In this document: positions 8,779-62,929 of the stretch, one piece after another
How the letters are laid out: the number at the start of each line of letters is the position of its first letter
Position numbering within the stretch: the stretch's first letter is position 1
Assembly: GCF_026210795.1 (NCBI RefSeq)
Contig: NC_089441.1
Location: 2,480,001-2,544,000 of the forward strand
Length of the DNA: 64,000 nucleotides
Source of the DNA: Rhizophagus irregularis
Lineage: Eukaryota; Glomeromycota; Glomeromycetes; Glomerales; Glomeraceae
Reading direction: 5' to 3'
The notes under the pieces: model-generated
The model's input: only the letters and a program-made list of their open reading frames with translations
The model's database searches: none
What the model was told of the DNA's origin: nothing
Translations under genes and position numbers: made by a program

Positions 8779-11700
8779 ATGTATGATAAAATGTTATCAA
8801 TAACAAAAGAAACTTTTAAATTAACTCAAAGGCAACGAACCAATCCAGTCTTTATCAGTTCCTTTATACGTGAAAATTATCACTTTAAAATCTGGTCAAG
8901 CTCACGTTTTCCTTATAAAAAATATCATTGGAAAACAAAGTCAGTTCCCGAAACTTCTAAACCAAAAAAAATATCTCGGCAGAAAGTTCCTTTGAAAGTT
9001 ACTAAAGAAGAAAAAAGGTATATATTTTTATTGTGTATTTAATAGCAAAATGATTTTAATCTATTTGTTTATTTATATTAAAGTAAAGATGTGCAAATAC
9101 TAAAGTCTTCTGAAGTATCAAAACATAAAATTGTTAAACGCTTTCAAAAAAAGGAATTAACTCAATCTACGCCAGATATAAAGGAACCTGAAATCGAATT
9201 ATCAGACATTGTTGAATTATCTAAATCTACACAATTACAAGTAGGAGATTTTGTAGATGTGCGAAGGTAAATGTGGATTATTATATTATCATTTGCCAAA
9301 ATATTTATTTCATACCATTTAATTACTGAATATTATAAAGGAATGGTAGAGGTTATATAGGAATTATTACAAAACTAAGTAATGATCCAACGTCAACTAC
9401 GTATAAAAATGAAATTTTACTTCCAAATAATCACCTACTTTTAACTCGTTCAGACGATATAGTCTTCAAAATTACAGGATATGCTTATAATAAAGAATTT
9501 AACAATTCTAAACTCGTCCTTGGTTCACCAATTCCTGAGAATTACGGAAAGCTTGCGTCAGATTTGAATAAATCGGCTCAAATCCTCTTACATTCCAAAA
9601 CTCTTGCATTTCGTCAACTTCATTCACAATTTGCAGATGAATTAGAAAATAGAAAGATTTCAATTAAAAGCGCAGCGCGTCACGTATTTCAGAATGGTAA
9701 CCCAACTGAAGCACAATTGTTGTCAACACACATGTTCCTTTTCAAGGAAAATATTTATTTCATGGCAGATCCTATGCAAATTGAAACCTACATACTGAGA
9801 TCAAAAAGATCGGTTAATGCAATAATAAAAACATTAGAATGGATTCGTCTTCGTGATCAGAGAGTATCCGATTTTCAAGAAAAAGTAACGAAGATTATTC
9901 AATACATACGTTCAATCGATAAAAAAATTTCAGAACCGCCTTCATTTACCAAAGGGGAGACATTACCAGAATTTACATCCGATGATCAAATGTTTATTAA
10001 CCTAGTTAAAACTTTTGTCTTTACTCCTAAGAATAGCCAAAGTGGATTAGAAGCACATTTATCAGCAATTCTGAAGCCATTGAAGTTATATGAAAGAGAT
10101 TTTGACAGAGAATGTGCAATTCAATTCTTGAAAGAAATTGGTATTTGGGCACCCTGGGAAAATCTAGCCGTTTATGAAGAAACAACAAAATTGAGCGGTC
10201 ATGGAATATCTAAGGAAGCTGATAAAGATCAAGAAGAGATCATAAATTTGGCTACAAATTTATTGGATTCCCAACCATTTGATACATCGAAAAATGTTAC
10301 ATCGACACCGGCATCATCAATACTAATTAAAACGGAAGAGTTTCTTGGAGAAAATGACTTTTATCCTCATGATATTTGTGAAGACATCCGACATGATTTT
10401 GGTGATTTGCCTGTTTACACTATAGATGATCCAACGGCTCATGAGCTTGATGATGGAATTTCAATAGAACGAGTAAATAATTCATCTGGAACAGAATCCG
10501 TATGGGTGCATATTCATGTTGCTGATCCATCTACTTATATTCATCCTGGTCATAAATTGGCAAAGGTTGCTCACTCAAGAGTTCAAACTGTATATTTTCC
10601 TGAACGAAATTATTCAATGTTACCATCATATTTAAGCAAGAAAATGTTTAGTTTGGGAGTAGATGGGAAAACGAGAGGAAATTATGTAATCACTTTCAGC
10701 TTACGAATTGGGGATGATGCAAGTTTGCTAGAATACAAAATTAGGCCTAGCATTATTAGAAATATTAAAATATTATATTACGATGATGTTGATAAATTTT
10801 TATCATGGGATTCTTTCTCTAAATTCAAAAAGGAAATTGATTTCGTCTACAAACAGATCCATTATCATCCGCACAAAATTTCTCTTCCAAACAATGAATA
10901 CAAACCGCTTCCATTATCTGGTCAACAGGATCTTAAGGATTTGCAAAAAATTGCAAACATTCATTTGAAAAATCGTGGACAAAAAGGATCTTTCAATCTA
11001 TCTCTGACCCAAGGAAATGCAGCATTATCACCTTTTCCATTGTACAAGACTCAACCTGATACTCAATATCCAATAATATTTACTGGTTTACCTACAATTC
11101 AGGTTAATCTTGATAAATTTAATTATTCTCCAGCTCGTATGATGGTAGCAGAATTTATGATAATGGCTGGACGAGTTGCTTCAATCTTTTGTTCAGAAAG
11201 AAAAATCCCAATTATATTTCGAACTCAACCTAAAAATGATGAAGTATTATCAATATTATCAAATATTGATGAAGATATTAAAGTTGTTCCAATTACTACT
11301 ATGCTTAAAATTCGATCATTGGTACAACCTACGAAAACCACTGTTGAACCTGGTCCGCATTTTTCTATGGGCATTACGGAAGGTTATTCAAAAGTCACTT
11401 CTCCTTTACGTCGGTATAGTGATTTAGTTGTTCACTGGCAAATAAAAGCATCACTTCTTAATGGTCGTTTACCTTTTTCCAAAGATGAGTTAGTAAATAA
11501 TATACCTTATATCACTTACTTCGAAAAAGAAATTCGTAGATCACAAACGAAAAGTAATAAGTTTTGGATTCTTAATTTAATTGATCGATTAAAGGCTAAC
11601 GGAAATTTACCAGAAATTACGGGAACTATCATTGAAGAATTTGACAAAGGAGATAGAACAGCTTTGATACGCGAATTTGGTATTCAAGGAAAAGTTATAA

Positions 11701-11795
11701 AGTCAACAGGTCAAATTGGTGATATAATAAATTTAAAAGTAATAGACATAATTCCTAATAAAAGTAATATAATACTTGAGCCTGTAAATAACTAA
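8779..11795 (+). CDS. DSS1: Mitochondrial exoribonuclease II (Dss1/Msu1-like)
   Basis: 3'-to-5' exoribonuclease, the catalytic partner of the Suv3 helicase in the fungal mitochondrial degradosome. Exons 8779-9017, 9084-9266 and 9341-11795 give 958 residues, close to yeast Dss1 (969). The basic N terminus (first about 60 residues, many K/R/S/T) looks like a mitochondrial presequence. Residues about 140-215 form a small beta domain. The RNB catalytic centre is at about 500-515: TIDDPTAHELDDGIS carries the metal-binding acidic cluster. The family's C-terminal signature is intact: GYSKVTSPLRRYSDLVVHWQ (about 827-846). A short S1-like tail follows. The long last exon is typical of older fungal genes. 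A second Met at codon 5 could be the true start; either gives a targeting sequence. Confidence 0.92.
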
Positions 11796-33225: not shown

Positions 33226-35513
33226 TTATTTCTCATTATCATCATAATTATCATCATTATTATCACCGTCATCCATACCTAATACATCATCTATATCATA
33301 ATCATAGTCACCTTCTCCGGGTCTCTTGTTATTACCACTATCATCAACTTCATCATCTTCCGCATTATTTTCATCTGAATCATCCAATATATCTCTTGGA
33401 ATATCGCCGATTTCACTAGTAATTGAATCATGCGATAAATTAACAAATTGATCAATCCATAGACTTTCAATTACTACACGGCAATTGTCTTCGGGTATTG
33501 TTTCGCCGCTTGTAGTTAATCTCTGAGTAGAAGCTTGCTCCTCATTATATTCCTCATCGTCATCTTCTGCAAAAGCTTCTGCAATACGTATATTGATCTC
33601 ATCATCACTAAGACGAGTATTCTTTTTTGATCAATTCCATAAAATCCAAGTTCAGTTTTTGAATTGGATTTCCAATACAAAATTAATTTGCACATGGATT
33701 CTAGTTTATCCACATTAAGATTTAAGTGACGTTTATGAAATAGCCATCCTAAAGTCGAAAATTCACGTTCGCAAGTTGCTGAGTTAGGACATATTGCAAA
33801 TAGATAACTTGCAATTCTTGGCAGGGCATCTGGTTCTGGTTCGGTATTAATATATTTCCACCAATTCACGGGATTATCTTTAGCAAAACCGATATCGAGG
33901 TCAAATGGCTCTTGCTCATTAATATATTTCTGTATTTGATCACATAAAGTTTCAGCTTCGTAACGGTCAAAACCTAAATTTTTCCCGATTGAAGCTGCAC
34001 ATTTGATAATTTTCATGAGGGCGCATTTTTTAAGTGGCGCGTTTCTAAATCTGGGATCCATAAAAAAACAAGTAATATACTTATCATCATCAAACTCATC
34101 AAATCTTTCATTTATTACTTTGATACAATGACTTCGGAATGCAGGATTTAATGATTTGGGTAACTTTTTTAATGTAGCTGCAAGTCTTGCCAAGCTCAGG
34201 AAACAATCTGCAAGTGTAGTTCTTCTCGATTCTAATGAAAGTACCGCTTTTCTTAGAGGATCCAGAACAAATCCAAGAACTCATAAATTTGAAAAAAAAT
34301 TTCTCGATTGAATAATCGGTTTTATTTTATCATTTGTTAGCACTTTATCGTGATCGCTGGCCATTTCTTCTAGTGCTGATTCTAAATTTATTATTGAATT
34401 TATGGATTCACTAGCAGTAGTCCAGCGTGTCTTGCAATATAATTTTAATCCTCCCCCACTAATTCCTTTTTCTTTAATTATTTGAGCAAGTTTTGCATTA
34501 TCCTGATGAGAACTTCTAAAAAAGGTTGTCAAAATATTAACACGTTTTAATAAATGTTCCCCAAACTTCTCCTTGACGATGTCGCATGCAATTAAATTGA
34601 TAGAATGTGCAACGCATTACACATTCTCAATCTTTGGATGATTCTCATGTATAATTTTTCATGCATTACGAACATTGGCCGCATTATCGGAAACTACAGC
34701 ACATATTCGATCTTCTCCAATACCTTCTATAACCTTTTCAATTACCGTAACTAGATATTCTGCAGTGTGCAAATTTTCAGACAAATCAGAAAGTTGATAA
34801 AGATATTCTTTACGTGACAGAGTCATTACAATGAAGTTCCAAATTGAACGATGTGTACCAGACGTCCAACCATCAAAGGCTAAATTATAAATTAATATTA
34901 TATAGTAAGTAAGATTAAATAAAAATGACGTATGATAGCCTATTTAATTTAACAAACTTAACGTTAAATTCGTTTCCTTTTCAAGCTCAGAATTAATTTT
35001 GAAGTTCACTTGAGCTAATTCACGTTCAAGTAGTTGATTTACTAATACTTCCCTTGTTGGTGTATTGTACCCAGCATTAAGCTCTTTTATAAAATTGATG
35101 AAAAAAGGATGTTCCACTACTCTAAACGCAATTCCGCACACAATAAAAATTTAACTAATGCACGATTAATTCGTGTACATCTTTGTTCGTTAAGCTCTGT
35201 TGAATCATGGTAATCATCCATGTTACTTTGACCTTCAGAGTATTTTCTTTTTTTGGATGACTTGGACTTATCTTGCCGTTCCATTACTTTAGTCATATAC
35301 CTTTTAACAACTGCTGCTGGCGCATCTGGACAATGGTTTGAAAGATGCTCTTTGAGCTTTGAAACTTTACCGCGTGACCATGTATTCTTACAGTGCGGCA
35401 AATTTGCCAGAACCAACAGCTTCTCCTTTATTAATATCTTCCCAAATGCTATTAGGTGGCTGATCTCCTCTATTTTTCTTTTTAATGGGTGAATCTTCTA
35501 TGTGATCAGTCAT
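33226..35513 (-). pseudogene. hAT transposase with BED zinc finger
   Basis: Reading down the minus strand: an N-terminal segment from ATG 35513 (MTDHIEDSPIKKK), a BED-type zinc finger (PHCKNTWSRGKVSKLKEHLS, HC), a conserved FDGWT, SDNAANVRNA then CVAHSINLIACDIV with the usual hAT spacing, CKTRWTT, and the C-terminal dimerisation region (ALPRIASYLFAICPNSATCE, REFSTLGWLFHKRHLNL), ending in an acidic tail. The gene is broken: frame changes near 35398 and 33630, TGA/TAA codons at the SDNAAN-CVAH region, and an intron near 34.88-34.96 kb. It is nevertheless well preserved across its length, so decay is moderate. Plain DNA transposon. Confidence 0.85.
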
Positions 35514-44739: not shown

Positions 44740-45970
44740 AATATAAAAAAAAAATATGAGCGAAAAAAAAGTGGAACAACCTTTTTGTTTAAAAGTAGGT
44801 GATATTTATCGAGAAAATATGAATGAATAAAAAATGTAGAGCAACTTTCTTGCTCAAAAAAGTAGATGATAAATATTGAATGAACAAAAAAAAGGGCGAG
44901 GTTATCATGATATAATTTTGAGATTTTAGCTATTGTAATTATGATTGTAGTATTTAATTGGAAAATATACATGATCTTAATATCATTGTGTATCGTGTAG
45001 AATGCAGGATTAGTTAAAAATATCAGGAGATGGGAAAACTAAAAATTATGATTTCTAGAAGATCGAAAATTAAATTTAATTAATATAAATAAATTATTAC
45101 AATATCGAATTTCATTCAGTGAAATTTTTTTTTACATGGAAGATTATCTCAAATCGATTTTACGGTTTCAAATTTATTATATTTTTCAGGCTATACGTGG
45201 AATGAGAAGAAAAATAATGGAAAGGTGAGAAGAAAAATGATCGGTAGAAGAAAAGGAGTGAGAAGAAAAATGATTGGTAGAAGAAAAGGAGTGAGAAGAA
45301 ATTAATGGAATATTACGTTTTGAATTTCCATTTTTATGTGTGATACGATGACATGCGAAAAAAAAATTTATAAGATCCTGGTACTCTTGACGGAAAAATA
45401 ACTGAGCCAATGAACCATGTGATGATCCTATCTAACTAAGCCATATCTATTTAATGTAAGCCTCTGGATTGATTACATAAAAAATAGATGGGATCTACAG
45501 TAGTAGACTTACAACGATATTTGAAAAATACTGATATATTGATTGAAATTGTGAAATTACTGATAGGAAAGAGTTTTAATACATATTGGTGTAATCAAAT
45601 ATCGGTATATAAAGTATCAACTATTCAAATAATACAAGTCATGTGCAACTAATCATTTGTTTAATTGTTCGATAATATTCCTAAAATGGAGTAAATTAAG
45701 ATCGAATTAAGTTCGTTACGGTGTAAATTAAGGTTAGCTTAAAATTCAGTATAATTGTAATATATCATCGCAGTGTAATATGAAATATAATCAAGGAAGG
45801 ACATGCGTGATTTAAAATATTATATTTTATAATTATAAAGTATAAAGATAACATTTTAACTCATTTTTTATTAATAGAATTTGTTTATTTATTTTTATTT
45901 ATATATATTAATTAATGCAGTATTACTATAATTATATTTTTAAAATAAATTGATAAATCAAAAAATTGAG
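44740..45970. other. Interior spacer of element B with short duplications
   Basis: It contains two diverged copies of a stretch of about 75 bp (from about 44757 and 44830; shared words GTAGAGCAAC/GTGGAACAAC and GATATTTATCGA/GATAAATATTGA) and a 35-bp duplication at about 45225-45300 (AGAAGAAAAGGAGTGAGAAG). No gene was recognised. Confidence 0.5.
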
Positions 45971-46487
45971 TGTATTCAATGTTAAATAAATTAATTAAAG
46001 ATGATTGCATTAGAACTAAAAAATTTAGGCAAGATCGTAAAAATAAACTCAAAGAAATCAAAAAAAAATATGTGTGTATTCAATGTTAAATAAATTAATT
46101 AAAGATGATTGCATTAGAACTAGACAAGATCGTAAAAATAAACTCAAAGAAATCAAAAAAAAATTATGTGTGTATTCATTGTTAAATAAATTAATTAAGG
46201 ATGATTGCATTAGAACTAAAAAATTTAGACAAGATCGTAAAAATAAACTCAAAGAAATCAAAAAAAAATTATGTGTGTATTCAATGTTAAATAAATTAAT
46301 TAAGGATGATTGCATTAGAACTAAAAAATTTAGACAAGATCGTAAAAATAAACTCAAAGAAATCAAAAAAAAATTATGTGTGTATTCAATGTTAAATAAA
46401 TTAATTAAGGATGATTGCATTAGAACTAAAAAATTTAGACAAGATCGTAAAAATAAACTCAAAGAAATCATAATAAATTTATTATAA
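45971..46487 (+). repeat. Five 105-bp tandem repeats, open as 35-residue repeats
   Basis: TGTATTC starts recur at 45971, 46075, 46171, 46276 and 46381. Unit lengths are 104, 96, 105 and 105 bp; the 96-bp unit lacks exactly 9 bp. Units 2-5 read continuously as a 35-residue repeat (containing YSMLNKLIKDDCIRTKKF and QDRKNKLKEIKKKL) up to TAA 46485-46487; unit 1 is one base out of frame. The reverse strand is also open. Copies are near-identical. It could be a young minisatellite or a small basic repeat protein; the frame-preserving deletion is suggestive but not proof. Confidence 0.75.
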
Positions 46488-46538: not shown

Positions 46539-47126
46539 ATGGCAGCATTAAACTTAAACGCAAATCTTCCAGTATACATTCAATGGCCCGATGACGCTGC
46601 TTTGACCTTAATTCAGCGTCGTCGGGCCTATCAGCCCTTATTCACCACAACGAGGTTACATAACCAAAACCAATTATGGCGTGGAATTGCTCGTGATATA
46701 CGAAACAACCACATATTCAGGCCAACTAGAAAACAATGTAGAGAGAAATGGAATGCGCTAAAGTCGGGATACGAGAATTTAGAGAGATTAATAAACAGAA
46801 ATCCTGAAGGATATCCCACTCGTACCCTGACTTTGCATGACGAGAGATTCCACCAGGAACTCTCTGACGAGTTTTGGAGAGTGGAGCGTAAGTATTTATT
46901 ATTTAACTGATTTTTTCATTAATTCATTGCATTTATATTAATACTTGCTTTGTTTTAAGCATTAGTCCGGGCCGCCCGGAGAAATAGGATGGATCGTAGA
47001 ACATACGAGTATAGAGAGCGCAGGCGCTCTCGCTCCCGATCCCCCTACTACCACCGAGAGCGCAGGCGCTCTCGTTCTCGATCTCCTCACCACCGAGAGC
47101 GCAGGCGCTCTCACCGACGTCATTGA
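46539..47126 (+). CDS. SANT/Myb-like protein with RS tail, intact
   Basis: Two exons (46539-46887 and 46966-47126) with a GTAAGT...TAG intron give 169 residues. The N-terminal 115 residues form a compact, Trp-rich helical domain: PVYIQWPDDAAL, LWRGIARDIRNNHIF, RKQCREKWNALKSGYENLER and DEFWRVE. The W...IA..I...R...QCREKW..LK..YE pattern resembles SANT/trihelix DNA-binding domains. Exon 2 encodes an Arg/Ser tail with three REERRRS-like units (YRERRRSRSRSP, HRERRRSRSRSP, HRERRRSHRRH), as in splicing factors. Exon 2 is much more GC-rich than its surroundings. It lies in element B just before the transposase, and a broken paralogue lies in the hAT element at 32014-32661. It is therefore probably an element-borne gene; DNA-binding or transposition-helper roles are inference. 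Confidence 0.75.
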
Positions 47127-54549: not shown

Positions 54550-57114
54550 ATGAACCATCAAACCTTCTTTTTTAGCCCAAAGTTTAATAAGAAACCGATT
54601 TATAAATTACAAACAAATAAGTACCAAGAATTCACAAATGCTTACGTATATAGTATTATGGTTAAGACCGGAAATGGTGATCCTACCCGTGCTGAACTTT
54701 GTGAATCAGCAGCTAAAGAATGGAATAAAATTAAAAGAAAGGATAACACGGAAATTGATGACATTATTAGAGGTTACCTGGCCACGTCATATAATCTATG
54801 TGATATACAAACAGTGAGGTCAAAATCATCTGGGTTTAAAGAAGAATCACACCCAAATCTTCCTATGTTTCATATAGTGGATCCTGTTCAGGAAATCTCT
54901 CTTAATGCATCAGCTCAAAAAAAGGCAGTAAACGAGATACAAATAGCAGAAAAAAAGCTTATCGAGTTTGAGCAGATCTACAACATCACAACCGATTCTC
55001 AATTTCAGCTTGATACTTATAAAAAAGTAGAAGATCTTTGAGATGAAATCAGATCTAATAAGGAAAGAATCATTAAATTAAAAAGAAATGCTAGTTATGC
55101 TCAAAAGTGCAGAGAAAAAAAAAGAAAAATACTTAACGAAAATCAGGAAGTAATACGATATGACAAACCTGGTCGTCCTTCACTTCTTTTTGAACATCTG
55201 AATTTAAATGATCATATCCATGATTCGATCGAATTTGGAGCAGCTGACGAAAAATGATGAAGAGAAGTTGTCAAAGTCCAAATCATTGAAAATTTGTGCA
55301 AAACCCTTAAAGAAAATTATAACGTTTATATGGCGAGAACTACATTAAATAATTACTTGTTGCCTCAGCAATCCAACTCCATCGCTGCAAGAGCGCATCA
55401 TCATCCGGCATTTGTCGCAGTAGCTAGCGTCTCATGTACCAAAATACGGGATCATCCTGATGGTTATTATTGCCTTGCATCTGTTAAAAGCGCGAGACAA
55501 TTTGCCACCATTTTTGCCGATAAAGCTGTTATTATTTCGCAAGATGATAAGGCGAAAATAGGTCTTGGAGTACCCGCTGTAGGTTGGCCATTTCGCACTT
55601 TACAATCAGTACATGAGCCTGTTAGCGTGGCTAATCATGATTTTTCTCTAGAAAATGGGCAAAAGTTAGTTCCATCAGTTTATCTTATGATAAAACTAAA
55701 TGAATCGAACGATGAGTTACGAATAGGACAACTTTCAATCTTTGTACGTCATCAATAGTCCCTTGGTACATCCTCACTCTCACATATGCAAGACCTCAAA
55801 AACCTTGCTCTGGATCCTAAATATAACGATGTGTTGAAAACAAATGGAGAGGTTTGATCTATTTGGGTGTTATTGGTGGATGGAAGTCCAAACGAAAATC
55901 CAAGACATCTAAAAAATATTAAAAACTACTGCCAACTTTTTCAAAAATTTGATTTAGATTACCTGACTGTGCGAACACATGCTTCAGGTTAGTCCAAGTA
56001 TAATCCAGTTGAAAGAGGCATGGCAACACTATCCGGAAAATTGGCTGGTATCACGCTACCAGTTGATCATTTTGGATCACACTTAAATACATAAGGCAAG
56101 GTAATTGATCTGGAGTTAGCCCTTCAAAACTTTCGATATGCTGGAGAATCACTTTGCGATATTTGGCGCAAAGATATGATTTTTGGGAAAAGCGTTGATG
56201 CACGGTATGTCAAAGAGCTTACTAATCCGTTTGAAAACCTAGAATTTGAGGCAGGGTACAGCAGTGTTCGGCAAATGACTTGAAATGACCAAATGATTCA
56301 AATGATAAATGACAAATGACATGTCATTTCAATGCTCAAATGACAAATGATCTTGGTCATTTTAATGTAATTTTGGCCAGCATTATGATTTTTGCCTACA
56401 CTACATTCATTATTTTTTAATTATAGTGCATGATTATTTATGTGATAAATATTAGCCAATCAAAATCAAATGATTGAAATGACCAAATGACAAATGATTA
56501 TGAATAATGACAAATGATTTCATAAATCATTTAAATGGCCAAATGACCAGGTCATTTCCGAACACTGGGGTACAGACAAAGAAAAAGAAGAAGAGTGAAA
56601 ACAACAAAAAAAGAAACAAGAAAATGAAAATGACATACCGGAATGTTTTATGCCATAGTCATGGATCAAAAACCATTGTAATTTATGTCTATATTCTCTT
56701 GATATTAAACGTTGTACAAATGCAAGTTGTTGTGGGCCATCTCGTGCAAAAGAAGCTACAGATTTTCTCTTGAATAATGGTTTTTTGCCTCCAATTACGA
56801 AAGCTAAAGATGAACATTTTACAAATCCCATACATCTCCTTGAGTATTATGACCTCTTGAAAATTCCTGGGTATGATTCACATTGTTCATCACTTGATCA
56901 AACAACCTATTCGTGCCTTCGTTGCTCAGTGTGCAACAAATACTTTCCAACTCTTGCTTATTTGACAAAACATAAAAAAGCAATGCATACAGCAAGCTGG
57001 GGACGACCTAAGAGAAAATCCAAGAATAATTCAAATTCTCTTGATGATTCCTCTCTTCTCACTTCACAACAAAACGAAATGTGTTTAAGGAAATATATGT
57101 CAGATAATGAATGA
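54550..57114 (+). pseudogene. DDE transposase of element C
   Basis: Plus-strand transposase of a family I recall as abundant in Rhizophagus. Order: N-terminal helical part (GDPTRAELCESAAKEWNKIK), a basic coiled coil (YAQKCREKKRKILNENQEV), GRPSLL, then the catalytic core with the likely DDE residues in VIISQDDKAKIGLGVPAVG, WVLLVDGSPNENPRHLKN and KYNPVERGMATLSGKLAG, and a C-terminal C2H2 finger (CSVCNKYFPTLAYLTKHKKA, MH). Stops at 55039-55041 and 55254-55259, further stops near 55756 and 55855, and the MITE at 56262-56567 make it dead. The three catalytic blocks are all still readable. Confidence 0.7.
56262..56567. mobile_element. 306-bp hAT-type MITE with perfect 8-bp target duplication
   Basis: Terminal repeats CAGTGTTCGG (start) and CCGAACACTG (end), extending as AAATGAC / GTCATTT, flanked on both sides by GGGTACAG (56254-56261 and 56568-56575). 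The 8-bp duplication and CAG...CTG-type ends mark it as hAT-mobilised, of a different family from the MITE at 31485. The interior is dense in AAATGAC/GTCATTT words. It interrupts the element C transposase, so it is younger than C. Confidence 0.92.
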
Positions 57115-57300
57115 TCGTATATAGCTTAGATATAAAAAAATTTTTTTTGTTAACATGGGAACACAAATGACTAATAAATTCTAAGCCACTAAATCGGTTA
57201 TATACTTTAATGATATCATGTGATCAATATTAACATAAGATTTTTCGTAGCCTTCCCATCTCCTAAAATATTACGTAATAAATGTCATCACCCTTATTAC

Positions 57301-57713
57301 GAAACTTACATTATTACTAGGTTATGATTTTAATGAATATGCAGAAATTAATTTTTTAAACAATAATCTTGAATGTTTACGGTATTGGCCATCTGATATT
57401 AAAATTGATAATGCAATTAGTATAGGTTATGAGAGAGCTATTCACCTAGCAAAATATTTGGAAATGACAGCTATACCAGATGATGCTTATTATTTTAATA
57501 TTCATAAGAGATTTCCAGATTTACAGCTTGATGATTTTTGGAATGATGATCCAAATCCTAGAATTATGGATAGTAATGATGAATTTAATGTGGATAATTT
57601 GTCAACTAATCAATATATAAATCACACAATATCTAAAATGAATATAAATCGAGAAAAAGAAATTAATTCTAATGATTCGCAAATTACATTTCTGATGAAA
57701 AAAAATTATAATT
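57301..57713 (+). pseudogene. Element A transposase-like gene, fragment 4
   Basis: Encodes LGYDFNEYAEINFLNNNLEC, LRYWPSDIKIDNAISIGYER, AIHLAKYLEMTAIPDDAYYF and LQLDDFWNDDPNPRIMDSND, ending MKKNYN at the element E junction. It belongs to the same family as fragments 1-3 by position and strand; the frame continues on the far side of element E. Confidence 0.55.
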
Positions 57714-60306
57714 GGGGACCCGCACAGCAAAAGCCGGGGCTCGGCTGATAACGTGTTTTCAAGAAAAATGAGGTTTTAAATTACGTAATTGATTTTGCTG
57801 ATCATTGCGAAAAAAGGCGATTTCTCAAAAACGTTCTTTATAACTTAGAATGAAATTTCGCAGGAATCTAATTGAAAACATTAGCTTCTTTTTAAATATT
57901 TTTTTTTTAATTAAATCATGAAATTTGTATAGCATGTATTTCAATAAAGTTCATGTAATATTTCTTTAAAAAAACCAAAATAGTTCGCTTCAAAAACTTT
58001 ACTTTTGCTTGATGTTTGCCTTTTAGAAGTATAAAAAAAAATAATAAACATAATGGCGGCGTCAGCAACAGTAAGTAAACTAAGAAATAGGCTTATTTTA
58101 TTTGAAAAATTAGTTTAACTTGTTTCATTTTCATTCGGCTTAGAGCAAGTAATGTCATGAAAGGGTAAATCAACAAAAGAGGAAATTTCCTTATATAATT
58201 CCTCTTGTCTTTTCAAGGAAAGGGGTCTGGGACTAATTGTAGATGGTAAAATATTCGTGGCATAAGTACAGTTATGAATTGTGGCTTCTTTATAGTTATC
58301 TTCAAGCCTATCTTTATAAAAAACAACTCCGGGATGTTGCGAATTAAAATAAAAGTGGTGGTATTTTTGAACATTAGGTAATTTTTTAAAACTTTGAAAA
58401 AAATCTTTAAAATTATAATACTGAAATCCTTCTTCATTTAGATAACGCTGTGAAGTATTAAGACGAACTATAGTAGAACGATTAATGATAGAAGTTACAT
58501 CGTCTACAGTATTTACTCTACTTTTCCTATAAAGAATCTTAATTAATCCGAAACAACTATCACAAATGAATTTTGTGTGCCCAGGTATTATAAAATTCAA
58601 CTCAATTTCTTCGTACAGACCACGATCAATTAACCATGAATAGAAAAATAAAGAATAATTGTTCTTATTTTGACCCACACAGTTATCACACGTGATAACT
58701 AATTTTTTTTCTCCACGATTATATTTTTGTATAGCGTGCCAAACTAAACTTAATGTACAATTAACACCCTTTCCCAGTTTACCATCGTCAGGCATTTCAC
58801 CTTCATCAATAACATAGTTGGTTTGTTCTGTATGTGGAAAATTCCCGGTATTGCAAACCCCAAACAAGTGTACTTTTCGAGGACTTCTAAAAAATAAACT
58901 TCCTATTTGCTGTGGAAAATAAGGAACTTGCACATTTTGAGCCCAATCATACGTAATGTGAGCACTACCTTCAAAAGTTTTAAAAAATACTTGAGATTCA
59001 GTTCTATTTGGATTACATTTACCATCTTCAACTGCGCGTGTAATATTAGCATTATAATAATCACGCTCTTCTTTTGCACGGTTCAAATGAGCCAAATAAT
59101 TCTCTGTCACTGATAATTTCTTTTCATGTTGTGTAGTGTGTTGAATTTCTAGCTTCATTGTTTCACATTTTTCGCATAAATCAGACTTTGGTGACATAAA
59201 TTGGAGTGATGGTATTAGTAATTTCCAGATTTTATGAAAAGTTGATTCAGCTACAGCTCGCATTTCCCTTCCATATTCATCTTTATAAGCTTGTACATAA
59301 TCACGATATACTGACATATAACTGTAACTTGTTGGAAGAAATACTACTGGCATGGATATTTTATTAAAGTTTCGTCCAGGTGAAGGTAATCCATGTATAT
59401 CGGAATAATTTTTTAAAAAATTAAAAATTCCATTTGCTACATCATAATTTACATCAACACGATTCATATTTTTTGGGACATTACCAGTATTACCATGTAT
59501 ACGTTCTTCAAGACCATTTTCTCGTAAATGTTTTATTACATTATCTAAATATAAATGTCCAACTCCAATAAGAGCCTGATATGTGCTGCGACAAATTGGA
59601 AGATCATTATTAAAACAATATTTGAAACGTGAAAACTTTCTGTTAATAGCGGTTGTTTTTTTTGTATTTTCTTCCTGCTGGAAAGCCATAAGCTGTCCCT
59701 TAACTACCATGTCTCGCATAACTTTATCCAAACTTTCAAATTCCACCCGGCGTTTAAGAAATCGTTCATAGCCTATTTTCTCAAAACAATTAGAATTACA
59801 TGAGCATTTTTTTTTTTCAAAAAGCTCTTTTACTTTTAATTTTAAATTATCATAGAATTTATCCTCAATATAATTATCAAGATTCTCTACAAACTCAAAA
59901 TTATTTAGATGCATTTCATTAAAATTTTCTACAAGATCTTCAATTTTATCAGAATCGGAAATATCATCACTATCCGATATATTTTTTTCATCTGAACTTG
60001 AATTATTTTCAACAAAAAAAGTATTATCTAGTTCTTCTAAAGCGGATAAAATATTTTTATTTGCATCATCACTATTAAAATTAATACCATATTCCATATT
60101 AATTAATAAGAATTATAAACAAAAAATGCGAAAGTTTTTAAAATAAAAGGTGTGAGAAAATTCTAGGATTACGCCTTATTTTTACTAATAAATTATAAAT
60201 GGAAAATCATTTTTTATGAAAGGTTAGACCTGTATACATATGTTCATCAAAAAATCTCAAAATCACGTGATCGGTCCGAGCCCCGGCTTTTGCTGTGCGG
60301 GTCCCC
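57714..60306 (-). mobile_element. Intact-looking DNA transposon E with perfect 31-bp TIRs
   Basis: The 31-bp terminal repeats 57714-57744 and 60276-60306 are exact complements (outer end GGGGACCCGCACAGC, inner part GCCGGGGCTCGG). They are strikingly GC-rich in this A/T-rich setting. AATT flanks both ends (57710-57713 and 60307-60310), a 4-bp target duplication. The 2593-bp element encodes one uninterrupted transposase (58115-60097, minus strand). Removing the element and one AATT leaves the element A reading frame continuous (KNYN then CQVIIELVEKLPD), confirming the borders. Perfect ends and an open gene indicate a recent insertion. The superfamily is unclear; a 4-bp duplication occurs in Sola-type elements among others. 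Confidence 0.93.
58115..60097 (-). CDS. Intact transposase of element E (DUF7869-like)
   Basis: A single exon encodes 660 residues with no stop or frame change. The N-terminal 80 residues are acidic and Ser-rich. A small cysteine cluster (KKKCSCNSNC, about residue 100) follows, then a predicted helical region with CRSTYQALIGVGHLYLDNVI and MPVVFLPTSYSYMSVYRDYV, and a zinc-site-like SDLCEKCETMKLEI (about 315). The likely catalytic core has AHITYDWAQNVQVPYFPQQI (about 380-400), LVITCDNCVGQNKNNYSLFF (about 467-486) and IIPGHTKFICDSCFGLIK (about 505-522). The DN.xGQNKN and GHTK...D.xF motifs are, from memory, those of the DUF7869 group found in transposon-like proteins of corals, oomycetes and fungi. 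The Asp residues fit an RNase-H-type nuclease, which is inference. It lies alone between perfect TIRs, so it is very probably the element's transposase. Confidence 0.88.
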   Translation of the reverse strand: MEYGINFNSDDANKNILSALEELDNTFFVENNSSSDEKNISDSDDISDSDKIEDLVENFNEMHLNNFEFVENLDNYIEDKFYDNLKLKVKELFEKKKCSCNSNCFEKIGYERFLKRRVEFESLDKVMRDMVVKGQLMAFQQEENTKKTTAINRKFSRFKYCFNNDLPICRSTYQALIGVGHLYLDNVIKHLRENGLEERIHGNTGNVPKNMNRVDVNYDVANGIFNFLKNYSDIHGLPSPGRNFNKISMPVVFLPTSYSYMSVYRDYVQAYKDEYGREMRAVAESTFHKIWKLLIPSLQFMSPKSDLCEKCETMKLEIQHTTQHEKKLSVTENYLAHLNRAKEERDYYNANITRAVEDGKCNPNRTESQVFFKTFEGSAHITYDWAQNVQVPYFPQQIGSLFFRSPRKVHLFGVCNTGNFPHTEQTNYVIDEGEMPDDGKLGKGVNCTLSLVWHAIQKYNRGEKKLVITCDNCVGQNKNNYSLFFYSWLIDRGLYEEIELNFIIPGHTKFICDSCFGLIKILYRKSRVNTVDDVTSIINRSTIVRLNTSQRYLNEEGFQYYNFKDFFQSFKKLPNVQKYHHFYFNSQHPGVVFYKDRLEDNYKEATIHNCTYATNILPSTISPRPLSLKRQEELYKEISSFVDLPFHDITCSKPNENETS

Positions 60307-61151
60307 AATTGTCAAGTAATTATTGAACTTGTAGAAAAATTACCTGACATTCTATGGTTTCCAAACGGTAAATAATAGTAATTAATTCTTCATTATTTTA
60401 TTGTTAATTTTGTATTTTATATTTATAAATAGATTCTAAATTCAACTGTAATTATATATTGGATGATGAATTAAATGTTGATTTTTTTTTGGATTTATGT
60501 CAAAATCATGATGCCTATACGAGTAGAAATCTTGAACGAACAAAAACTGTTTTTAAAAACAATGAAAATAATACTTTAGACAAACTTAATGTTAATATGG
60601 GTAGTAATTTGGTTTCATATTTAACGAAAAATGATGATTCTACTTTAACTAAATCGTGAGAAAATAGATGGAAGTTAAGTAAAAATACTAATAATAACAC
60701 AAAAGGTAAACTAATCTATAAACCATTAATTGTTAAAGATGAATTTTTTTCACATTTTTTTCTATTTTTAAATCATTCACATGCTGATAACTCTGCTTTT
60801 TTACTGTTACAAATTGGATCTTTCGTAATAGCTAAATTTGACAATACATTTTGTGTTACTCAAATCAACACCATGTATGAACAAAAGTCCTTAATGCATT
60901 CATATACTGATACTCCTGTTTTAGATCTCAAATCTCTTTCTTATGTATCTATGAAAAATTTCTTTCATATTAATGGTGCAATTTTTTCAGAGATTCAGAA
61001 TCATCATTTTTTAATTTTTTCTCATACTAAAATTTCACATATTATTTATCATTTGGTATTAAAAGATATTATTATTAGTGAAGAAGCATTAATTCTTAAA
61101 GGACAAGCAAAGGAATACTTTAATGCACTCCTTAAAAATAATAATAAATAA
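60307..61151 (+). pseudogene. Element A transposase-like gene, fragment 5 (C terminus)
   Basis: Starts CQVIIELVEKLPDILWFPN, then an intron (about 60370-60432), LDDELNVDFFLDLCQNHDAY, an in-frame TGA at 60657-60659, then FLLLQIGSFVIAKFDNTFCV, SYVSMKNFFHINGAIFSEIQ and a final helix ending EYFNALLKNNNK with TAA at 61149. It lies about 200 bp before the right end of element A. Confidence 0.55.
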
Positions 61152-61366: not shown

Positions 61367-62290
61367 AAAATAAAACTTTTCAAAACTTACTGTTACCGAT
61401 CTAATTCTAACTAAAGATTAGAACCAATAGCTGATAGTACCTAAAAAAAACAGAAAAAAAATTAAATATTTTTTTTAAATATTAAAAAAAGTTTCAAAAT
61501 GAAACTTTTCAAAATTTACCGTTATTGATCCAAATTCAAGGGAACTGGTAGTACCTAAAAAACAAAGAAAAAAAAAAGTTAAAATTTTTTTTTAAAAAAA
61601 AAGTTTTGAAGCTAAGTTCTTCAAAACTTGCCATTACCGATCTAAAGTCCAAGTCCAAAGATCAGAGCTGATGTACCTAAAAAACAAAGAAAATAAAATT
61701 AAATTATTATTTTTTAAAAAAAAATATTAAAAGTTTCGAAAGTTTAAGTAAACTTTCAAAACTTACCGATCCAAAATTTATATCAAAGTCTGGGATCATT
61801 CCTAAAAAAAATTTGAAAATGGAATGTTAGTAATGCCTACTAATGTTCCTAATTTAAAAAAATCACGCCCTTCTTTATTTACCTTCCGAGATATTTCATC
61901 AGTTCTGAAGCGTCTTGAGGGTTCTTACAATAAAAAAAAAGAATTGGAACGTTAGTACTGCCTACTAATACTTCTAATTTAAAAATAATACCCTTCACCT
62001 CCTTCTTTATTTACCTTTTGAGATGTTTTATTAGTTTTGAAGCGTCTTGAAAGTTCCTACAATAAAAAAAAAGAAAATGGAACATTAGTAAATGATACTA
62101 ACGTCCATAATTTAAAAATAATACACTCCCCTCTTTCTTTATTTACCTTCTGAGACGTTCATCAGTTTTGAAGCATTTTGAGGGTCCTACAATTTAAAAA
62201 AAAGAAAATGGAACATTAGTAAATGACACTAACGTCTATTATTTAAATATCTTTTCTTCTCCTTTTTTATTTACCACTGGTCGAAATAGT
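61367..62290 (-). repeat. Tandem exon/intron-like units, types I and II
   Basis: On the minus strand the array repeats T-rich tract, TTTTTAG, a 35-45-nt block, then GTAAGT/GTAAAT-like donor and an 80-nt AT-rich spacer. Type I units (four, period about 113-125 bp, 61370-61830) have blocks starting GTAC and ending GGATCG. Type II units (three, period about 131 bp, 61860-62270) have blocks such as CCTCAAGACGCTTCAGAACT followed by a GAAATATCTC-type end. Spacers contain the palindromic pair GTTTCAAAATGAAAC. Block lengths differ and are not multiples of three, so coding is doubtful. Confidence 0.6.
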
Positions 62291-62458
62291 CCAAATCGGC
62301 TAGAAATCAGATGTCCGATTTTAGGCTGAATTTGGTGATAAAGATGGCCAAATTATCAATCCAAAAAAAGTTCCGATTGGCAGGCTGATCAATGCCGATC
62401 AGAATGTCCGAATTGTATCTAGATTGCTTAGTATTTTTAATCCGAATTGTTTAAAAAA

Positions 62459-62885
62459 ATATATTCATAAATTTACCGAATTGCAGTGAATTTATTCTGA
62501 ATTATGATAAATATTGATAAATTGTGATAAATTTTAATCTGAATTACAGTAAATTTTAATCTAAATTGCAGTAAATTTTATTCTGAATTGTGATAAATTT
62601 TAATCTGAATTGCAGTAAATTTTCTATTCTGAATTGCAGTAAATTTTATTCTGAATTGCGGTAAATTTAATCTGAATTGTGGTAAATTTTATTCTGAATT
62701 GCGGTAAATTTAATCTGAATTGTGGTAAATTTTCTATTCTGAATTGCGGTAAATTTATTCTGAATTGTGGTAAATTTTATTCTGAATTGCGTTTGAATTG
62801 CAGTTAATTTTATTCTGAATTGCATCTGAATTGCAGTAAATTTTATTCTGAATTGTATCGCAAATTACAGTAAATTTTATTCTGA
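62459..62885. repeat. 22-bp minisatellite, about 17 copies
   Basis: The unit TCTGAATTGCAGTAAATTTTAT recurs with small changes (GCAG/GTGG/GCGG/GTGA) throughout. It is flanked by exon/intron-like units on both sides. Confidence 0.85.
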
Positions 62886-62929
62886 AATTTAAAATATTAC
62901 ATATATATATAAAACAATTTCGCCTAAAA

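What the first reader, a model, noticed from the sequence alone, without database searches (positions are those of the whole stretch)
57714..60306. Young, intact DNA transposon with perfect 31-bp GC-rich ends and an unusual transposase
The sequence shows exact 31-bp inverted ends, an AATT duplication and a 660-codon open transposase. Its core motifs (DNCVGQNKN, PGHTKFICDS) are recalled from the DUF7869 group, which to my knowledge is not assigned to a named transposon superfamily. Such ends in an A/T-rich genome imply recent arrival or spread. This is my best candidate for a poorly described system.
Basis: partly seen in the sequence, partly recalled or inferred. Interest (0 to 1): 0.85.

Follow-up and report, generated by a model that had tools for sequence, protein, structure and literature searches.

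The report
Intact Sola-like DNA transposon in fungus
A complete, apparently recently inserted cut-and-paste jumping gene in an A/T-rich, probably fungal genome, whose transposase, end sequences and target choice are shared with rare bacterial elements and fit the already named Sola superfamily.

Summary
Window 57714-60306 (2593 bp) has perfect 31-bp inverted ends, flanking AATT copies and an intact 660-codon ORF on the minus strand. The ORF matches only Pfam DUF7869 (E 1.5e-21). A motif scan of 84,980 prokaryote species genomes gave 16 loci, 11 encoding homologues (25-33% identity). Seven of the 11 have both ends; with the window, 16 of 16 ends carry AAAA at positions 16-19 and 13 of 16 start with GGGG. 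All 16 flanking 4-mers read A..T; the 4-bp copies are identical in 4 of 8 elements. Asp384, Asp471 and Asp513 are conserved and the model has an RNase-H strand order, but fold matches are weak. DDD transposase, 4-bp AWWT duplication and presence in bacteria are published Sola traits, and Rhizophagus is reported to carry Sola-2 families. No labelled Sola transposase was available, so membership by sequence is untested. GC3 resembles host genes: recent insertion is supported, recent arrival from elsewhere is not.

The parts
57710..57713 (.). left copy of the 4-bp target duplication, AATT
57714..57744 (+). left terminal inverted repeat, 31 bp perfect (imperfect to about 57759); GGGG at 1-4, AAAA at 16-19
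58115..60097 (-). transposase ORF, 660 aa, single open frame, PF25273 DUF7869 at residues 409-595
59786..59806 (-). Cys motif CxCxxxC, residues 98-104 (possible metal site with C308/C311)
   Evidence: C100 and C104 kept in 10 of 10 rows with that region, C98 in 9 of 10; metal binding is inferred
59162..59185 (-). SDLCxxC motif, C308 and C311
   Evidence: 10 of 10 rows with that region
58934..58951 (-). first catalytic Asp candidate D384 (YDWAQN), first core strand
   Evidence: 11 of 11 rows with that region
58661..58690 (-). second catalytic Asp candidate D471 (CDNCVGQNKN), end of the fourth core strand
   Evidence: 12 of 12 rows
58559..58582 (-). third catalytic Asp candidate D513 (GHTKFICD), short helix after the fifth core strand (low model confidence here)
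   Evidence: 12 of 12 rows
60276..60306 (-). right terminal inverted repeat, 31 bp perfect
60307..60310 (.). right copy of the target duplication, AATT
57458..57709 (+). open frame of unknown family (no Pfam match at E up to 1) interrupted by the insertion; continues for 21 codons when the flanks are joined with one AATT

Best explanation
57714-60306 is a complete autonomous cut-and-paste DNA transposon of the Sola type, most likely Sola2. Its single protein is a DDD transposase with an RNase-H-like catalytic domain (D384, D471, D513). The transposase recognises ends of the form GGGG-N11-AAAA, cuts the element out at the GGGG, and joins it to a target 5'-AWWT with a 4-base stagger, so that repair leaves AATT on both sides. 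The element landed in an open frame recently enough that ends, duplication and ORF are still perfect. Shown: anatomy, duplication, shared end pattern, A..T target form and conserved Asp residues. Inferred: catalysis, end recognition by the conserved blocks, metal binding by the Cys residues, current activity, and the Sola2 label.
For: Perfect ends, AATT and ORF. Empty-site reading. Eleven of 16 motif loci encode homologues, and all 11 genomes score over the DUF7869 cut-off. Eight elements with both ends (window and 7 of the 11) have AAAA at 16-19 in 16 of 16 ends; 0 of 100,000 shuffles gave a common AAAA position. 16 of 16 flanks read A..T; identical 4-bp flanks in 4 of 8, chance about 2e-7 from local composition. 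D384 in 11 of 11, D471 and D513 in 12 of 12 rows. Model of residues 300-660: pTM 0.84, order b-b-b-a-b-a-b then a short helix with D513. Sola in print: DDD transposase, 4-bp duplication, bacteria and metazoans, mostly 2-9 kb (passages); Sola2-type elements with AWWT duplications ATAT, AAAT, ATTT (passages); R. irregularis with Sola-2 families (passages, section).
Against: No labelled Sola transposase could be compared; the founding paper is not held. 4 of 8 elements, all bacterial, lack identical 4-bp flanks; those four share only AT on both sides. No fold match reached E 0.001 in any of three searches. pLDDT around D513 is low in both models (blocks of 46 and 51). No second copy in the host was seen and no host genome is held, so mobility in this genome is not shown.
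Confidence: 0.75

Rival explanations
1. A separate, unnamed superfamily of DDD transposons (the DUF7869 group) that shares only duplication length and A/T target with Sola.
For: Only DUF7869 matched in Pfam at E up to 10; no NCBIfam match over its cut-off for the window protein and two homologues; strong shared end signature GGGG-N11-AAAA. No Sola sequence was available to show kinship.
Against: Three published Sola traits coincide: DDD, 4-bp AWWT duplication, presence in bacteria; Sola-2 families are reported in Rhizophagus irregularis, although the window's species is not proven.
Confidence: 0.2
2. A member of another superfamily with 4-bp duplications (Ginger, Academ, Chapaev/CMC).
For: Duplication lengths overlap: Ginger 4-6 bp; those of the others are recalled.
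Against: No Pfam integrase or other transposase model was listed at E up to 10, though HMMER's filters drop most matches above 0.1. Ginger ends TG..CA, this element starts GGGG.
Confidence: 0.03
3. A dead or domesticated copy, not a mobile element.
For: One copy in the window; no host genome to count copies.
Against: Perfect 31-bp ends, perfect duplication, intact ORF and all three Asp.
Confidence: 0.05

Closest known systems
Sola superfamily, Sola2 group
   Same: DDD transposase, 4-bp duplication of AWWT form, terminal inverted repeats, mostly 2-9 kb, known from bacteria and eukaryotes (passages).
   Different: The Sola2-type elements of Dictyostelids in the passages have 12-21-bp ends, an 888-aa transposase in one case, and carry Fanzor1 genes; here 31-bp ends, 660 aa, and no second ORF over 100 aa.
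Pfam PF25273 DUF7869
   Same: The window protein and matches in all 11 genomes of the homologues score over the curated cut-off.
   Different: The Pfam model is 192 positions long, covers the catalytic core only and gives no function.
Bacterial DUF7869 elements with both ends found here (L006 Desulfocicer, L016 Desulfobacterales, L009 and L007 Thiomargarita, L010 Legionellales, L002, L012)
   Same: Homologous transposase (25-31% identity), ends with AAAA at 16-19 and mostly GGGG at 1-4 (GGGA in both L007 ends, GGCG in one L002 end), A..T flanks.
   Different: 2.0-2.7 kb; 4 of 7 lack an identical 4-bp duplication; the L007 copy is broken by stops.

Membership tests
Sola superfamily | DDD transposase | tested here: met
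   D384, D471, D513 conserved in 11 of 11, 12 of 12, 12 of 12 rows with the region; RNase-H-like order in the model. Catalysis itself not tested.
Sola superfamily | 4-bp target-site duplication | tested here: met
   Window AATT/AATT. In relatives 3 of 7 identical at 4 bp, 4 of 7 not.
Sola superfamily | sequence kinship of the transposase to named Sola transposases | not testable with these tools
   I found no labelled Sola sequence; founding paper not held; look-ups in supplements capped at 0.
Sola2 group | AWWT target | tested here: met
   16 of 16 flanks A..T, 15 of 16 AWWT. AWWT for Sola2-type elements from passages of PMC3627910; whether Sola1 uses the same target is not known from any call.
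Sola superfamily | distribution reaching bacteria | tested here: met
   Homologues beside bacterial genes in L006 (named strain, 147-kb contig) and L016 (48-kb contig).
DUF7869 (PF25273) | score over the curated cut-off of 26 bits | tested here: met
   77.3 bits
Ginger | integrase-like (rve) transposase and TG..CA ends | tested here: not met
   No rve match listed at E up to 10; ends GGGG..CCCC

The most novel reading that the evidence does not exclude
DUF7869 elements form a transposon superfamily of their own, spanning bacteria and eukaryotes, defined by GGGG-N11-AAAA ends, AWWT target and a DDD core with the motif GQNKN, and separate from Sola; the fungal element is a young, probably working member.
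Probability: 0.2. Interest if true: 0.6.

Novelty: new member of a known kind. Interest (0 to 1): 0.38.

Why it matters
It ties an unnamed protein domain (DUF7869) to a concrete mobile element with defined ends, target and candidate catalytic residues, and shows that the fungal and bacterial copies still share an end code although their proteins are only about 30% identical. If Sola membership is confirmed, DUF7869 can be given a function and a name. The perfect copy is a candidate for an excision assay; I saw no such assay for Sola in the passages that I read.

Tried and rejected
Search of the window's own genome: none held. Viral contigs by protein, by exact end, by motif and by alignment: no relatives (in 48, 30 stretches matched a pattern, none confirmed). 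Plasmids and phages by tblastn: no match at E 1e-5. PDB by sequence profile: one match, E 0.85, taken as chance. Viral structure library: no match at E 0.001. More bacterial carriers: DUF7869 in 1 of 395, 2 of 95, 4 of 146 and 1 of 92 genomes, the alignment in 1 of 398 and 1 of 288; every carrier was one of the 11 already known, and the sets overlap. Other ends in the window: with up to 2 mismatches 10 matches against 13 expected by chance, and the only 2 exact ones are the element's own. Considered and rejected: recent arrival from a GC-rich or bacterial source (GC3 as host, best identity 33%, long branch and no supported placement in the tree).

Dropped before counts: of 16 motif loci, 5 (L001, L005, L008, L013, L014) encode no homologue. 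Of the 11 others, L004, L011 and L003 gave no end pair (weak single matches only in L011 and L003) and L015 one end only (AATT before GGGG), so the end statistics use 7 of 11 plus the window. Borders were set by the rule that GGGG (GGGA in L007) is position 1, and those of L009 and L010 were moved by one base; I had already seen the AAAA alignment by then. The GGGG count is therefore not independent evidence, and the AAAA and flank tests were made after the pattern was noticed; the AAAA shuffle allows any position. The composition control treats flanks as independent.

Full report
Observation. The element spans 57714-60306 (2593 bp). Its ends are perfect inverted repeats of 31 bp, and with the palindromic AATT on either side the match is 35 nt. 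The end occurs nowhere else in the window with up to 3 mismatches. One ORF of 660 aa (58115-60097, minus) fills most of it. Joining the flanks with one AATT keeps the interrupted frame open for 21 codons; with both AATT a stop follows at once. This is modest but independent support for a 4-bp duplication.

Host. No genome is held. A neighbouring ORF (9564-11795) matches the RNB domain (E 5.7e-65) and, below the curated cut-off, a cyt-4-type winged helix (E 7e-4), which suggests a fungus. That it is a glomeromycete is my inference from composition and gene style, not a result.

Protein. Pfam gives only DUF7869; NCBIfam gives nothing for the window protein and one match far below cut-off for each of two homologues. 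A scan of 84,980 prokaryote species genomes (contigs of 3 kb or more) for D-x-C-x-G-Q-N-K-N gave 16 loci; 11 encode homologues, at E 4.5e-31 or better. All 11 genomes have a match over the DUF7869 cut-off; 0 of 14 control genomes do. Two loci lie on long contigs beside bacterial genes: L006 from a named strain (acyl-CoA dehydrogenase and rve integrase genes) and L016 (GAF, Toll/interleukin-receptor and response-regulator genes). The other 9 are on contigs of 3.1 to 8.1 kb, 7 of them titled as metagenome bins, so their hosts are less sure; L003, a sponge-symbiont bin with several broken pieces, may be sponge DNA. Besides the main match, shorter pieces were found in G008, G010 and G011, and the G009 copy is split by stops. 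The family is rare: six further searches, of 395, 95, 146, 92, 398 and 288 genomes, found no new carrier.

Ends and target. Seven of the 11 loci have both ends. With the window this makes eight elements and 16 ends. Lined up at GGGG (exact in 13 of 16), all 16 have AAAA at positions 16-19, while positions 5-15 vary. Shuffling positions 5-36 gave no common AAAA column in 100,000 trials. All 16 flanking 4-mers read A..T and 15 are AWWT; the product of local frequencies for A..T is about 5e-17 if flanks are independent. The 4-bp flanks are identical in 4 of 8 elements (window, L010, L002, L007); lengths of 3 and of 5 to 9 gave no match in any. The other four (L006, L009, L012, L016) match only over the 2 bases AT. 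In L006 the left flank cuts an rve integrase ORF, and by eye I could not see that frame continuing in the right flank, which would suit a later rearrangement; this was not tested, and the other three are unexplained.

Catalytic core. D384 is kept in 11 of 11 rows that reach it, D471 and D513 in 12 of 12; C100, C104, C308 and C311 in 10 of 10. The model of residues 300-660, on 12 sequences, has pTM 0.84 and three strands, helix, strand, helix, strand, then a short helix with D513, the order of an RNase-H core. Confidence around D513 is low (block mean 51). The full-length model is weaker (pTM 0.55). Foldseek against the PDB lists many RNase-H-like proteins (a chain of a CAST transpososome, Argonaute, endonuclease V, UvrC, terminase nucleases, an intasome chain) but none at E 0.001 or better, and unrelated proteins such as acetyl-CoA carboxylase stand among them. 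The viral library gave none at E 0.001 either; several listed names there are RNase H. That these belong to the RNase-H superfamily is recalled knowledge.

Age. Perfect ends and an open ORF speak for a recent insertion. The ends are 74% GC, but the interior (28.9%) equals the window (28.3%), and third-position GC (0.188) lies among four host-like genes (0.138-0.223); two further frames left of the insertion gave 0.155 and 0.284. The element therefore looks resident. The tree gives the window row a long branch (3.38) and no supported partner, so no recent transfer from the sampled bacteria is indicated.

Comparison with the known. [quoted passage not shown] PMC3627910 states that Sola2-type elements in Dictyostelids have AWWT duplications, and ATAT, AAAT, ATTT in Polysphondylium. 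PMC11075540 reports Sola-2 among families of Rhizophagus irregularis (passages, one section). PMC4455052 treats Sola1, 2 and 3 as subgroups of one superfamily (passages). These fit. The one test that would settle it, comparison with a labelled Sola transposase, could not be run; the founding Sola paper and a survey of catalytic domains are not held. DUF7869 and PF25273 appear in no paper of the library searched; that library lacks most papers of subscription journals.

Verdict. A genuine, intact cut-and-paste transposon, most probably Sola2-type (0.75). New member of a known kind, with a useful end and target signature shared by fungal and bacterial members.

Noticed in passing
L006 4582-6697, L009 1543-3598, L012 1580-4294, L016 631-2969: Four bacterial relatives have A..T flanks on both sides but share only the 2 bases AT, not 4. 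Rearrangement or a variable stagger are both open.
   Followed up: partly
L007 1633-3676: A Thiomargarita copy has perfect 35-bp ends and an ATTT duplication, but its transposase is broken by stops.
   Followed up: partly
window 33516-34193: Minus-strand ORF with a hAT dimerisation domain, probably the remains of another transposon.
   Followed up: no
window 54550-57709: Several open frames with stops between them (no Pfam match over the cut-off) lie left of the insertion; the element may have landed in an older mobile or repeated gene family.
   Followed up: partly
window 61815-62886 and 45970-46482: Tandem arrays (units of about 132, 22-88 and 105 bp), the last with long frames open through its copies.
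   Followed up: no
window 46539-46910: ORF with a Myb/SANT-like DNA-binding domain, possibly part of another mobile element.
   Followed up: no
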